From Verrucomicrobiaceae bacterium (GTDB lineage Bacteria; Verrucomicrobiota; Verrucomicrobiia; Verrucomicrobiales; Verrucomicrobiaceae), in assembly GCA_016795485.1 (NCBI GenBank), contig JAEUHM010000010.1, positions 1 to 64,000 of the forward strand: 64,000 nucleotides of DNA, read 5' to 3'. This document shows, in pieces, positions 28,380-32,500 of this stretch; positions within the stretch are counted from its first letter, which is position 1, and every line of letters begins with the position of its first letter. A program made the translations under genes and the position numbers. A model generated the notes under the pieces. It searched no databases, had not been told where the DNA came from, and saw only the letters and a list, made by a program, of their open reading frames with translations.

Positions 28380-29018
28380 ACCAGAGGGGACGGCGGGGAG
28401 GTCTGAGGGACGGAACTAGGAGGGTTTTACCATGTTTGGCCTTAGGGTGTCAATCATTTGAGGAGTACGGCGGCAGGAGTGGGCGATACGGCGGTCGAAC
28501 AGGCAGGTACGGCAGCCAAAATGGGCGATACGGCGGTCGAATTGGCAGGTACGGCAGCCGTACTTGCCTCTGAGGGCGCCGTACCTGCCTCCGGGACCGC
28601 CGTGGATGCCACTTAAGGCGCCGTGCCTGCCTCTTCGGCGGCGGATTCTGGGGCGCCGTTGGCTTTGGAGCGTCGGGAAGTCGGAACTCTGGCGAGTTCC
28701 GCTACGTGGGGTGTAACGGAGGGCATCTGCGCTCGTAGTTCGAGCTTTAGCTCGTCCCCGGCGCTTCCTGAGCGAGCTGAAGCTCGAACTACGAACTCGT
28801 AGCGGAAGCCGCGTAGGCTTCCGATGAGTGGCCCATGGCTTGTTCAGAGCGCAGAAGTCGGAACTCTGGCGAGTTCCGCTACGGGGGGCGCGGAGGGCTT
28901 CTGCGCTCGTAGTTCGAGCTTTAGCTCGTCCCCTTTTCCGGTCGTCAGATTCGAGTTCCGGAGTGAGAGAGGAGCCTTTCCCTCAACGATGGCTAAACCA
29001 TCGCCAACCACCGTGAAC
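28380..29018. repeat. Gene-free mosaic of short direct and inverted repeats
   Basis: This 639-base stretch has no supported gene. GGGCGATACGGCGGTCGAA occurs at 28481 and again 42 bases later, each followed by a GGCAGGTACGGCAG word. A composite block starting GAAGTCGGAACTCTGGCGAG recurs at 28677 and 28854, and each copy is followed by a CTCGTAGTTCGAGCTTTAGC word (28731 and 28906). An inverted copy of the second word lies at 28773-28794. The blocks contain internal hairpins (GAGCTTTAGCTC, GGAACTCTGGCGAGTTCC). It looks like an intergenic REP-like cluster. Confidence 0.85.
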
Positions 29019-30113
29019 TCAGTCGATCTGCTCTTTTGGCGGCTTGATCTCAGGTGGGGCTGCGGGTGCGTTCGGATTTGGCTTGGTCGGAGGCACATCC
29101 AGTACGATCCCTGGCATACGAACCCGATGGTACTCGACGGGCGAGATCTGCCAGACGACGGGTATGCCAACTACGTCAGCCACGTTTCTGGCTTCGAGAT
29201 ACGCTTCCACAGAATCTTGGAAGACGGAGAAGGAGATGACTTTTCCAGGCTCGCTTTTGAACTTGCGCACGGCGCGCTGATAAAAGGATGCAGGATTGCG
29301 GACTTGGGTGACATCCTCGCCACCGCCATCGAGAAGCGAGAGCTTCATGAACAACGCGGCAGATGTCGGAGCGGTCTGCTCCACGGTTGCGGCAAGGGTC
29401 CGGTCGCCTATTCTCGCTCTGGAGAAGTGCTCCAGGACTTTAGCGGGGAGGTAAACTGGCTTGTCTGGGGGGGAGCCGGGTTTAAGGAAGTCCTTCTTGT
29501 TCTTTTCAAACTCGGCCATCACCGCAGACAGGAACTGCTGCTCGTTGAGGTAGATGACTCTGCCCTTGGACACCAAAAACTGCTCTTTGACGGCATTCTC
29601 CGGCATGGGGCGCGGATTTGGGATGCGCACAAACTTGGGAGGCGGTGGTTGGTAGACGGGAGTGTCGTCGAGGGCCTTCTTCAAGCGGTCAACTTCGGCA
29701 AAAAGCTTGTCGAGAGCCGCTTTGGCAGCATCGCGGTCTTTGGTGGCCTTCTCGGTCCGCTTTTGGATCTCAGCTAGGTCCATGAACTTGACCTTCTTTT
29801 GCATGTCCGTGAGGTCGATGCTGTTGATCTGCTCTCGGAGCTTGGCCACCAGGTCTTTGTTAAGGTCGATCTCTTTCTTTACATCATCCGGCTTCTTCAC
29901 CGGTGGCGGTAGTTTCTCCAGTTTCTTCTTCAGTTCCTCTAACTGCACTTCCGTAACTGGGGGTAGATCCGAGAGGATCTTTTCCATCGTGCGTGCCACG
30001 TTGAGAGCAACGAGCACGAGCACGATCATGAGCACGCCCACCACGTTAGTGACGGCATCCATGAGGGAGTCGAGATTGGTCTCAGAGCCTCCGGAGTTTT
30101 TTCTCTTGGCCAT
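29019..30113 (-). CDS. ExbD/TolR-like protein with long coiled coil (second of pair)
   Basis: A 364-residue protein with one N-terminal transmembrane helix (NVVGVLMIVLVLVALNVA), preceded by ETNLDSLMDAVTN: an Asp at the membrane entry as in ExbD/TolR. A long charged coiled coil runs from about residue 55 to 165, followed by a proline-rich link (TPVYQPPPPKFVRIPNP) and a C-terminal domain with VISFSVFQDSVEAYLEARNV. It presumably forms the plug and periplasmic arm of a proton channel complex with the ExbB-like protein upstream. Start ATG 30113 (MAKRKNSGG) mirrors the MAKRRE start of its partner. It lies 4 bases from that gene. The cargo or outer-membrane partner is unknown. Confidence 0.8.
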   Translation of the reverse strand: MAKRKNSGGSETNLDSLMDAVTNVVGVLMIVLVLVALNVARTMEKILSDLPPVTEVQLEELKKKLEKLPPPVKKPDDVKKEIDLNKDLVAKLREQINSIDLTDMQKKVKFMDLAEIQKRTEKATKDRDAAKAALDKLFAEVDRLKKALDDTPVYQPPPPKFVRIPNPRPMPENAVKEQFLVSKGRVIYLNEQQFLSAVMAEFEKNKKDFLKPGSPPDKPVYLPAKVLEHFSRARIGDRTLAATVEQTAPTSAALFMKLSLLDGGGEDVTQVRNPASFYQRAVRKFKSEPGKVISFSVFQDSVEAYLEARNVADVVGIPVVWQISPVEYHRVRMPGIVLDVPPTKPNPNAPAAPPEIKPPKEQID

Positions 30114-30117
30114 AGGA

Positions 30118-31008
30118 TTAAGGCTTCGGGGTCGCGGGTTGAGGTGGCTGGAAATCTGCGGGTATCGGCCCAACGGTGCCGAGACGATCTCCAAAGAGCT
30201 TTAAGTCGACATCTCCCATGCCGGGGAGCAGAAGACGAGAAATGCGGATGTTATATTTTTCCTGAGCCCAACCACCACCCCGATTGTAAGCGGTGGTGCC
30301 ATCTGTGCGGAGGAGGAAAATGAGCTGTGCATTTCCTGCTTTTTTCACCTCGGTCAGGAAGTGGTTGAACTCGGCGCTGCCAATGATGGCCTCCTCGGTG
30401 GCTGCAACGGTCTTCTTTTGCCCGTCAATGGTGAAGGCCAGCTTCCCTCCGGATGCCTCAACGAAGAACAGCTTCTGTGCGGCATCTTCCCCAGTGCCAC
30501 TGGGCTGCACCACCACGGGTGGCGGCTTTTTGTCGGGCGGGATCTGCCGTTTCTTCAGCTCTTCCATCAACGCAGCGATCTCTTTTTTCGTTTCTACCGC
30601 CTGCTTGTTAATGCCTTCAATCTCCAGCAGGAGGTTATCGAGTTTTTTGAGTGCCTCCTGACCCATCGCCTCGTTTTGACGCTGCACATCTGCGCTAGAG
30701 GTGATCAGACGGCGGAGATTGGCGAGCTTGTCCTCCTCCTGCTTTTTGTCTTCCACGTACTGGGCCAGCTTTTTGAGCAGCTCTTCCAGTTCCTTCTGTA
30801 GCTTTTCGCGCCGTTCCAGCTCACGAAGGAGCACTTGGTAGGTCTTGGCGCGGTCAATCTCCTCTTTGGTCCTGCCATCACCCTGCTCCGATGTGGTGAC
30901 GCTCATGACCACAATCATGAGGATCAGGCCGCCGATCAGGCAGGCCAGAATGCTCAGGAAGGGGAAGAGAGAAACCTCATCCCCTGTGGACTCGCGTCTT
31001 TTGGCCAT
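30118..31008 (-). CDS. ExbD/TolR-like protein with coiled coil (first of pair)
   Basis: A 296-residue protein. One hydrophobic helix near the N-terminus (FPFLSILACLIGGLILMIVV) follows MAKRRESTGDEVSL; a charged coiled coil (about residues 50-165, KLQKELEELLKKLAQYVEDK) and a C-terminal region with FFVEASGGKLAF and LIFLLRTDGTTAYN follow. The helix itself contains no Asp or Glu, unlike canonical ExbD, although Asp and Glu lie just before it. It is the middle gene of the ExbB-ExbD-ExbD set, so the complex may contain two different D subunits. The ATG at 31008 is clear. Confidence 0.8.
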   Translation of the reverse strand: MAKRRESTGDEVSLFPFLSILACLIGGLILMIVVMSVTTSEQGDGRTKEEIDRAKTYQVLLRELERREKLQKELEELLKKLAQYVEDKKQEEDKLANLRRLITSSADVQRQNEAMGQEALKKLDNLLLEIEGINKQAVETKKEIAALMEELKKRQIPPDKKPPPVVVQPSGTGEDAAQKLFFVEASGGKLAFTIDGQKKTVAATEEAIIGSAEFNHFLTEVKKAGNAQLIFLLRTDGTTAYNRGGGWAQEKYNIRISRLLLPGMGDVDLKLFGDRLGTVGPIPADFQPPQPATPKP

Positions 31009-31051
31009 GGTGAAAGTTTAGGGCTGGGGTTTTGGCAGCACAGAAGAACGA

Positions 31052-32500
31052 CTAGCGCCCAAACCAACCCTTCTTGCGGACCTGCTGAATGATGACCTGC
31101 TTCTCTCCAAGCTCTCTCAAAACATTGTTCAGCCCTTGCAGACCGGATGCGAGGGAGCCGACATAGTCTCTGGTCTTGGACATGGTTTCTTCCATGCCGG
31201 ATGTCACATCCTCACGCAGCTTGATCATCGTTCGACTGAAATCAGCTGCCACTTGCTGGGCATGTGCGTCTGCCCGTTTATCGAGATTGGCTGCTTGCTC
31301 GCCGATCTTGGCAGTGACTCTCTTCAAGTCTTCGATCAGCTCCTGCTGAGCGGCTGTGACTGCCTTGGTCAGTGCTTCGATGAACTCTCCGGTGGCACCA
31401 CCACCAAACATCTGACTGATTTCAGAGCCAGCACCATCGTTGAGGCGAGGAAGGAGCACTTCATTGCAGAATGCATCGATGGCATTGAGGTTGTCATCCT
31501 CAGCCTTGGCGAGTGCGTTCATGGGGAAGTTCAGGAACATCGCCAACACCAGACCCAGAAGAGTGGTATCGAAAGCTGTGCCCAAGCCCTGGGTCACTTT
31601 GCCGATGGAAGCCACAAGTGCATCCACGCCACCAGCGATGTCCATGCTCCCGATGGCTTGGGAAAGACCGAGCACGGTGCCGATGAACCCGAGAATCGGA
31701 ATCGCCCACAAGAACACCTTGATGATCGTGTAGCTGTTACCGATGCGGGAACCGTCGATGTTGGACTGAGCGTCCATCATGCTGGAGACCTCGCCGTTGT
31801 TTTTGCGCACTTCAAAGAGTTCCAGCGCTTTGCGCAATCGGTTGACCATCATGCTGTCGCGCAAGCGATGAGGGAAGCCATAAAAGCGATCGATGAACTC
31901 ACCCACGTTGTCGCCGTTGATCTCATCACTCATATCGCGAGGAAGCACGTCGATGTACATCGCATTGCGCTGCTGGCGGAGCTTCTGCCACTTCAGCCAA
32001 AGCATGCCAATGGCCCAGAAGAAGAACCAAGTTTCCGTGTAGTTGACCCAAGTGCGCTCGTAGAAGAGGTCGTGAATGTAGTCGAGCGCGTTAGACGGGG
32101 GTGTTCCATACGCGCCTTTTGCTAGAGGGAAGATCGCTCCATACCAAGCAAGGGTGGCCACCGTGCCGATCGCCAAGGAAATCCAGACGCTGGGGTTGGC
32201 TGGGTCTGTCTCTTCCCAACCCGTTCGCACCGGTGGCTTGCTGTTTGTAGAACTTGATGACTCGGAGGCTGCCGAACTGCTATGAGTTGCTCCATCGTCG
32301 ATAGGTCCAGAGTCACGCTCACCGCCCCAGTTGGGATCGTCTGGTCCGCCGGGAGCCGTGGTGCCAGCCGCAGTGGGTGGGGGAACAACAGATCCAGGGA
32401 TCTGCAGTTTCGTGTCGCATCCTGGGCATCGTACGGTCTTGCCTGCCATCTCGGCTTCGGCTTGCAGCGTCATGCTGCATGAAGGGCACTTAAACTTCAC
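31052..32500 (-). CDS. ExbB/TolQ/MotA-family proton channel with zinc-ribbon head
   Basis: A 482-residue protein. The first 37 residues form an MJ0042-type zinc ribbon (CPSC and CPGC, with MAGKTVRCPGCDTKLQIPG). A Ser/Pro-rich linker follows, then hydrophobic segments (WISLAIGTVATLAWYGAIF; WFFFWAIGMLWLKW; VFLWAIPILGFIGTVLGLS; FDTTLLGLVLAMFLNF) of which the last two are the MotA_ExbB domain. The C-terminal third is a helical region (TAAQQELIEDLKRVTAKIG). GTG 32500 is the start, with AGGAGGA about 8 bases upstream. It powers an envelope process through proton flow, together with the two ExbD-like proteins. The zinc ribbon is probably cytoplasmic and regulatory. Confidence 0.85.
   Translation of the reverse strand: MKFKCPSCSMTLQAEAEMAGKTVRCPGCDTKLQIPGSVVPPPTAAGTTAPGGPDDPNWGGERDSGPIDDGATHSSSAASESSSSTNSKPPVRTGWEETDPANPSVWISLAIGTVATLAWYGAIFPLAKGAYGTPPSNALDYIHDLFYERTWVNYTETWFFFWAIGMLWLKWQKLRQQRNAMYIDVLPRDMSDEINGDNVGEFIDRFYGFPHRLRDSMMVNRLRKALELFEVRKNNGEVSSMMDAQSNIDGSRIGNSYTIIKVFLWAIPILGFIGTVLGLSQAIGSMDIAGGVDALVASIGKVTQGLGTAFDTTLLGLVLAMFLNFPMNALAKAEDDNLNAIDAFCNEVLLPRLNDGAGSEISQMFGGGATGEFIEALTKAVTAAQQELIEDLKRVTAKIGEQAANLDKRADAHAQQVAADFSRTMIKLREDVTSGMEETMSKTRDYVGSLASGLQGLNNVLRELGEKQVIIQQVRKKGWFGR

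What the first reader, a model, noticed from the sequence alone, without database searches (positions are those of the whole stretch)
29019..32500. Proton-channel operon with zinc-ribbon ExbB and two unlike ExbD partners
Seen: the ExbB-like protein has an N-terminal CPSC/CPGC zinc ribbon. One ExbD-like partner has an Asp at the membrane entry, the other has no acidic residue within its helix. Both have unusually long coiled coils. Known: ExbD and TolR normally work as a dimer inside an ExbB pentamer. Inference: here the dimer may be a heterodimer with one protonatable subunit, working a large envelope device of unknown cargo.
Basis: partly seen in the sequence, partly recalled or inferred. Interest (0 to 1): 0.6.

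Follow-up and report, generated by a model that had tools for sequence, protein, structure and literature searches.

The report
Ion motor with two unlike axles
A three-gene, ion-driven membrane motor in Verrucomicrobiota and Planctomycetota seems to use two different central subunits, one of them without the usual acidic residue, and its membrane core exists in two versions that relatives have exchanged many times as a matched three-part set, which offers a way to test how such motors work and which ion drives them.

Summary
Confirmed: a minus-strand operon ExbB(zinc ribbon)-D1-D2. D2 Asp19 and D1 Ser19 occupy the same ungapped helix position. The triple is in 32 of 35 same-family genomes and in Planctomycetota; no fourth gene is conserved.

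Relatives have one of two membrane cores. "SD" (the window): D1 Ser19, D2 Asp15+Asp19, ExbB Thr312-Thr313. "DV": D1 Asp19, D2 Val15+Asp19, ExbB Ala312-Thr313. In 100 triples: 58 SD, 41 DV, one with all three acids, no other mixture. On a tree of the periplasmic parts the core type changes 9-12 times, and in all 9 supported independent contrasts the three sites change together, although the D1 periplasmic domain between them keeps its own history (AU p 1e-66). Best explained by one complex, probably ExbB5-D1-D2, with two incompatible cores.

Thr275/312/313 match the threonines reported for all Na+-driven flagellar stators; DV matches E. coli TolQ/ExbB. Inference: SD may be Na+-coupled, DV H+-coupled; NqrA, absent from both, gave no support.

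Stoichiometry, ion and cargo are untested. A new variant of 5:2 rotary motors; heterologous TolR-like pairs in PVC bacteria were already noted (PMC12204202).

The parts
31052..32500 (-). ExbB/TolQ/ZorA-like pentamer subunit, 482 aa, GTG start
   Evidence: Pfam MotA_ExbB 48.9 bits, cut-off 22.9; nearest PADLOC model ZorA2, 34.3 bits
32417..32488 (-). N-terminal zinc ribbon CPSC...CPGC, ExbB residues 5-28
   Evidence: present in nearly all Verrucomicrobiota relatives and in Planctomycetota; function unknown
31676..31678 (-). ExbB Thr275, aligned with E. coli ExbB/TolQ Thr in GLFGTV
   Evidence: alignment with E. coli TolQ, ExbB and MotA
31562..31567 (-). ExbB Thr312-Thr313; SD type Thr-Thr, DV type Ala-Thr
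   Evidence: residue 312 separates the 58 SD and 41 DV triples without exception; E. coli TolQ/ExbB have Ala-Thr
31055..31465 (-). ExbB C-terminal cytoplasmic helical tail, residues 346-482, ending GEKQVIIQQVRKKGWFGR
   Evidence: follows the history of the periplasmic parts, not of the membrane core: 9 type changes on its tree
30118..31008 (-). D1: TolR-like axle subunit without acid in its helix, 296 aa
   Evidence: no Pfam ExbD hit; C-terminal domain best match TolR 5by4, Z 6.6
30952..30954 (-). D1 Ser19 (AGC), in place of the ion-binding Asp; Asp in DV-type relatives
30547..30867 (-). D1 long periplasmic helix, residues 48-154
   Evidence: AlphaFold2 model, mean pLDDT 88
29019..30113 (-). 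D2: TolR-like axle subunit with acids, 364 aa, ATG start
   Evidence: Asp19 invariant; C-terminal domain best match TolR 5by4, Z 5.5
30069..30071 (-). D2 Asp15 (GAC), second carboxylate one helical turn below Asp19; Val in DV-type relatives
30057..30059 (-). D2 Asp19 (GAT), the conserved ion-binding position
   Evidence: invariant in every D2 aligned
29664..29951 (-). D2 periplasmic helices, residues 55-150
   Evidence: AlphaFold2 model, mean pLDDT 86.6

Best explanation
This is a 5:2-type ion-driven rotary motor of the ExbBD/TolQR/MotAB kind whose axle is a D1-D2 heterodimer in an ExbB pentamer. Shown by computation: the three genes occur together; D1 and D2 are homologous helices in the same register; ExbB core, D1 helix and D2 helix form one co-evolving unit with two alternative states (SD: Thr312, D1 Ser19, D2 Asp15+Asp19; DV: Ala312, D1 Asp19, D2 Val15+Asp19). 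These states have been swapped at least nine times against the tail and periplasmic parts, always as a matched set. Inferred: both helices share one pore. In the SD state all ion binding is on D2 (Asp19, with Asp15 as a relay or second site towards the cytoplasm), so D2 and D1 alternate unequally. Rotation turns or twists two rods that carry TolR-like domains to the cell wall or outer membrane. More tentative: SD and DV differ in coupling ion (Na+ versus H+), and swapping the core changes the fuel without changing the output.
For: Triple conserved: 40/57 relatives and 32/35 of the family, order ExbB-D1-D2 wherever read. D1/D2 register. States 58 SDD, 41 DVD, 1 DDD. Sites that separate the types cleanly: ExbB 149, 150, 156, 262, 312; D1 13, 15, 19; D2 13, 15, 36. 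Type changes by tree: ExbB 36-172: 1; ExbB 256-345: 1; ExbB tail: 9; D1 periplasmic: 10; D2 periplasmic: 14; nine of nine supported contrasts concordant for D1/D2 and for D1/ExbB, p 0.004 each. AU test: DV as one clade rejected on periplasmic data, p 9e-67, yet one branch with full support on core data; all five mixed-type groups tested were rejected on core data, p <= 1.6e-33. Mosaic: the closest mixed pairs (L043/L044, L077/L056, L085/L059) are 70-92% identical in the terminal domains but 27-35% in ExbB 126-172. Operons of both types share the same neighbours. D1 homodimers of SD type would have no carboxylate. Ion part: Thr158/185/186 rule (PMC10374538) and alignment.
Against: No complex was predicted or observed. 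Two separate homodimeric complexes sharing ExbB would also make each helix co-evolve with ExbB. D1 and D2 rod lengths do not co-vary positively (rho -0.25; both nearly constant). In some Planctomycetota D2 lies apart from ExbB-D1. NqrA is absent from all 38 genomes of both types tested, so there is no support for Na+ from that side. The Na+ rule comes from flagellar stators, and Thr275 is Thr in H+-driven ExbB/TolQ too. The switches are probably recombination events, so the nine contrasts may share donors.
Confidence: 0.65

Rival explanations
1. ExbB forms two separate motors, ExbB5-D1(2) and ExbB5-D2(2), and the matched changes reflect each D adapting to the same ExbB pore.
For: Each helix touching ExbB would co-vary with it; in DV-type both D subunits carry Asp19, so both homodimers could work; for AglQ/AglS the same question is open (PMC9389320).
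Against: In the SD type a D1 homodimer would have no carboxylate at all, yet D1 is kept in every complete locus read; absence of the D1 acid goes with presence of D2 Asp15, as if the pair shares one acid budget.
Confidence: 0.2
2. D2 is the working homodimer and D1 is an inactive regulatory or plug subunit that binds the pore or occupies it in a resting state.
For: D1 position 19 is Ser, Thr or Ala in various relatives, so the residue looks free of ion-binding duty in most of the superfamily.
Against: In DV-type relatives D1 has the canonical Asp and the ExbD/TolR-like motif PFLD; D1 and D2 have similar rods and the same class of terminal domain.
Confidence: 0.12
3. A rival to the ion part only: SD and DV differ in mechanics (step size, torque or leak) rather than in the driving ion; the core swaps are selected for another reason or are exchange between two ancient alleles.
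For: NqrA does not separate the types; many other residues also differ between the cores, including ExbB 126-172.
Against: The cleanly separating residue in the pore threonine ring is one of those reported to separate Na+ from H+ stators.
Confidence: 0.45

Closest known systems
TolQR / ExbBD (Tol-Pal and Ton motors)
   Same: MotA_ExbB fold with conserved pore threonines, single-helix partners with Asp at the same helix position, TolR-like terminal domain as best structural match
   Different: two different D subunits, one acid-free in the window; extra D2 Asp15; about 100-residue periplasmic rods; zinc ribbon and cytoplasmic tail on ExbB; no TolA, TonB, TolB or Pal recognised beside it; D1 and D2 below detection by Pfam ExbD
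AglRQS gliding motor of Myxococcus
   Same: one TolQ-like and two TolR-like proteins; hetero- or homodimer stated as unknown (PMC9389320)
   Different: AglQ and AglS both match Pfam ExbD (PMC3169522) and both are described with the Asp; gliding partners not seen here
Zorya ZorAB (5:2)
   Same: ZorA2 is the best PADLOC match to ExbB; a C-terminal cytoplasmic tail is present in both (PMC11890865)
   Different: ZorB is a homodimer with a Pal-like peptidoglycan-binding domain; no ZorC/D/E; stable housekeeping neighbours rather than a defence island
[quoted passage not shown]
   Same: a tolQ-like gene plus two unlike tolR-like genes in the same group of phyla
   Different: no fourth gene is conserved beside this triple; the acid trade-off and the core exchange are not described in the passages read
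Xanthomonas exbB-exbD1-exbD2
   Same: one ExbB with two ExbD genes (PMC3551730 in the search)
   Different: resemblance from name and my own knowledge only; not aligned here
PomAB Na+-driven flagellar stator
   Same: threonine triad Thr158/Thr185/Thr186 corresponds to ExbB Thr275/Thr312/Thr313
   Different: homodimeric PomB, flagellar function; the correspondence goes through E. coli MotA, TolQ and ExbB, PomA itself was not aligned

Membership tests
MotA/TolQ/ExbB superfamily (5:2 motors) | MotA_ExbB domain above Pfam cut-off | tested here: met
   48.9 bits, cut-off 22.9
MotA/TolQ/ExbB superfamily (5:2 motors) | pore threonines in the two channel helices | tested here: met
   Thr275 and Thr313 align with E. 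coli ExbB/TolQ threonines
MotA/TolQ/ExbB superfamily (5:2 motors) | five outer and two inner subunits | not testable with these tools
   no complex prediction offered
ExbD/TolR (PF02472) | match to the ExbD profile | tested here: not met
   no hit for D1 or D2 at E <= 1; the locus is not among nine ExbD hits in the genome
ExbD/TolR (PF02472) | Asp at the ion-binding position of the helix | tested here: inconclusive
   D2 met; D1 of the window not met (Ser19), D1 of DV relatives met
ExbD/TolR (PF02472) | TolR-like periplasmic domain | tested here: inconclusive
   TolR 5by4 is rank 1 for both models, Z 6.6 over 86 and Z 5.5 over 93 residues, both under 8; Foldseek prob 0.99 for D1, 0.28 for D2
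Zorya anti-phage system | ZorA above the curated cut-off | tested here: not met
   23.1 bits against a cut-off of 100 for the best NCBIfam ZorA model
Zorya anti-phage system | ZorC/ZorD or ZorE neighbours | tested here: not met
   no conserved neighbour beyond the triple; recurring neighbours look like NusB, lumazine synthase, GpsA and PlsY by my reading of their sequences
Tol-Pal or Ton system | TolA/TonB and partner genes beside the motor | tested here: not met
   no conserved fourth gene in 38 neighbourhoods; a partner elsewhere in the genome is not excluded
Na+-driven stator | Thr at all three PomA positions 158/185/186 | tested here: met
   SD type Thr275/Thr312/Thr313; DV type Thr/Ala/Thr (rule from PMC10374538)
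Na+-driven stator | activity depends on Na+ | not testable with these tools
   needs an experiment

The most novel reading that the evidence does not exclude
A natural heterodimeric 5:2 motor in which only one axle subunit binds the ion through two stacked carboxylates, and whose Na+-type and H+-type membrane cores are interchangeable cassettes: evolution repeatedly replaces the core in three matched pieces while the rods and output domains stay, so one machine changes fuel.
Probability: 0.35. Interest if true: 0.85.

Novelty: new variant of a known kind. Interest (0 to 1): 0.72.

Why it matters
Current models of 5:2 motors treat the axle as two equal helices, each with one ion-binding Asp that takes turns. 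Here nature offers one family in which one helix lacks the acid, plus sister motors that have it, with exact residue swaps that go along. That makes two open questions testable: whether two unlike D proteins can share one pentamer (unknown for AglQ/AglS), and whether both axle subunits must bind the ion. The repeated exchange of a matched core also shows where the module boundary lies, which artificial chimeras (1 of 14 worked, PMC11500496) have struggled to find, and may show natural Na+/H+ switching.

Tried and rejected
A viral-contig scan with the ExbB alignment gave no confirmed relative. Zorya membership rejected. A conserved fourth gene was looked for in 38 neighbourhoods: only housekeeping-like neighbours recur, and they differ between lineages. 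D1-D2 rod-length co-variation as a sign of a shared coiled coil: not seen, lengths are nearly constant. NqrA as a marker of Na+ use: absent from all 38 genomes. Profile searches of D1, D2 and ExbB against solved sequences found coiled coils and apolipoproteins, not motor proteins. A single origin of the DV type by descent of the whole operon was rejected by tree conflict. Independent point mutation of all separating sites in each switch is judged unlikely, since ExbB 126-172 differs at 62-77% of positions between the mixed pairs compared but shows 74-100% identity in the same-type pairs.
Full report
What is there. On the minus strand lie three genes, ExbB-like (32500..31052), D1 (31008..30118) and D2 (30113..29019), with short gaps (43 and 4 bases). 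Only ExbB is recognised by Pfam (48.9 bits); D1 and D2 match no ExbD profile, and a genome-wide ExbD search finds nine other places but not these. The genome has nine MotA_ExbB matches in all. The closest catalogue relative of this one is ZorA2, far below the NCBIfam ZorA cut-offs.

The helices. D1 MAKRRESTGDEVSLFPFLSILACLIGG and D2 MAKRKNSGGSETNLDSLMDAVTNVVGV align without a gap, so D1 Ser19 stands where D2 has Asp19. The motif PFL[S/D] of D1 lines up by eye with E. coli ExbD PFID and TolR PLLD. D2 has a further Asp15 one turn towards the cytoplasm.

Distribution. D2 was found in 40 of 57 relatives, including 32 of 35 of the same family. In the loci read the order is ExbB, D1, D2. Named relatives span Verrucomicrobiota, with one titled as a planctomycete (L156), and more were found in that genome's phylum. 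In some of these D2 stands apart, but D1 with ExbB is elsewhere in the same genome. The zinc ribbon is present in nearly all Verrucomicrobiota members. Recurring neighbours look like housekeeping genes by my reading of their sequences (NusB, lumazine synthase, GpsA, PlsY) and differ between lineages, so there is no sign of a dedicated cargo.

Two cores. In 100 distinct triples the residues at D1-19, D2-15 and D2-19 are Ser-Asp-Asp in 58, Asp-Val-Asp in 41 and Asp-Asp-Asp in one (L156). ExbB 312 is Thr in all 58 and Ala in all 41; further sites in ExbB, D1 and D2 separate the types as cleanly. In the more distant two-D systems that were read, position 312 is Thr (Ser in L250) and D2 has Asp or Glu at 15, while D1-19 may be Ser, Thr, Ala or Asp. 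So no triple was seen with fewer than two carboxylates per D1-D2 pair.

Core exchange. On the ExbB tree the type changes three times, on ExbB membrane segments once, but nine to fourteen times on trees of the ExbB tail, D1 periplasmic part and D2 periplasmic part. Nine contrasts on supported branches are independent, and in each D2-15 and ExbB-312 change with D1-19 (sign test p 0.004 each). Periplasmic data reject the DV rows as one clade (p 9e-67), while core data give them as one branch with full support and reject the mixed-type groups seen on the periplasmic tree (p at most 1.6e-33). Sister operons such as L043 and L044 are 91-92% identical in the last 200 residues of D2 but 27% in ExbB 126-172. 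Both types occur with the same flanking genes in one genus (L055/L056/L076 against L077/L080). Because the D1 periplasmic segment between the D1 and D2 helices does not move with them, at least three separate tracts must have changed each time. Selection for matched sets explains this; linkage alone does not. Caution: I chose the groups after seeing the trees, the trees were quick searches, the core trees contain the type-defining columns, and transfers may share donors.

Mechanism. Published structures show two D helices in one ExbB/TolQ pore, about half a helical turn apart in TolQR, with one Asp at the threonine ring and the other towards the cytoplasmic cavity (PMC12215075). A matched set of ExbB, D1 helix and D2 helix is what a D1-D2 heterodimer in that pore predicts. 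In the SD type a D1 homodimer would be without a carboxylate, which speaks against separate complexes. A review of 5:2 motors calls the hetero- or homodimer question open for AglQ/AglS (PMC9389320).

Ion. PomA Thr158, Thr185 and Thr186 are described as conserved in all Na+-driven stators, with Thr158 and Thr185 replaced by Ala in H+-driven ones (PMC10374538); MotA Thr209 of E. coli corresponds to Thr186 (PMC6677748). Aligned through E. coli MotA, TolQ and ExbB, the window's Thr275/Thr312/Thr313 are these three; DV motors have Thr/Ala/Thr like E. coli TolQ and ExbB. This suggests Na+ for SD and H+ for DV. It remains an inference: PomA itself was not aligned, and NqrA is absent from all genomes tested.

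Rods and ends. Models give a 107-residue helix in D1 and a broken helical rod in D2, then a small domain in each; TolR (5by4) is the top match for both (Z 6.6 and 5.5), in the range where a common arrangement may be all. Rod lengths are nearly constant over the family (D1 143-165, D2 139-150 residues between fixed points).

Prior art. [quoted passage not shown] In the passages I read it does not describe the acid-free subunit, the second acid, or core exchange. My searches covered only open-access papers.

Noticed in passing
L231:4491-12391 and L228:52-6864: A relative of the two-D motor without zinc ribbon (D1 with Asp19, D2 with Asp or Glu15) lies beside a protein of about 960 aa and one of about 460 aa in both loci; in L231 the smaller one has a trypsin-like protease domain. 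No function known.
   Followed up: partly
own genome G000:C3:252541-253945: A second ExbB gene with two ExbD genes beside it, these with ordinary Pfam ExbD matches.
   Followed up: no
L112 and L149 (both Akkermansiaceae bacterium UBA2381): One assembly seems to hold both a DV-type and an SD-type operon, on different contigs.
   Followed up: no
window:29019-30113 against relatives: D2 comes in several sizes: about 364-385 aa here and in some genera, about 515 aa or about 560 aa elsewhere, by insertions in the terminal domain.
   Followed up: partly
window:28727-28756 and 28901-28930 (-): Exact 30-base repeat GACGAGCTAAAGCTCGAACTACGAGCGCAG downstream of D2; chance expectation 0.
   Followed up: partly
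window:24687-28379 (-): 1230-aa protein made largely of short repeats (GSDGSFYGTT..GG..GTVFKIT), with a DUF7453 match at its end.
   Followed up: no
window:32720-33775 (+): PilT-like ATPase divergent from the operon, 293 bits, below the pilT_fam cut-off of 319; not a conserved neighbour.
   Followed up: partly
window:43854-53039 (+): 3061-aa ORF with a DUF1800 domain and weak TSP3, CHRD and fn3 matches.
   Followed up: no
L220, L222-L225: In some Planctomycetota D2 stands alone with no ExbB or D1 beside it, while ExbB-D1 lies elsewhere in the genome.
   Followed up: yes
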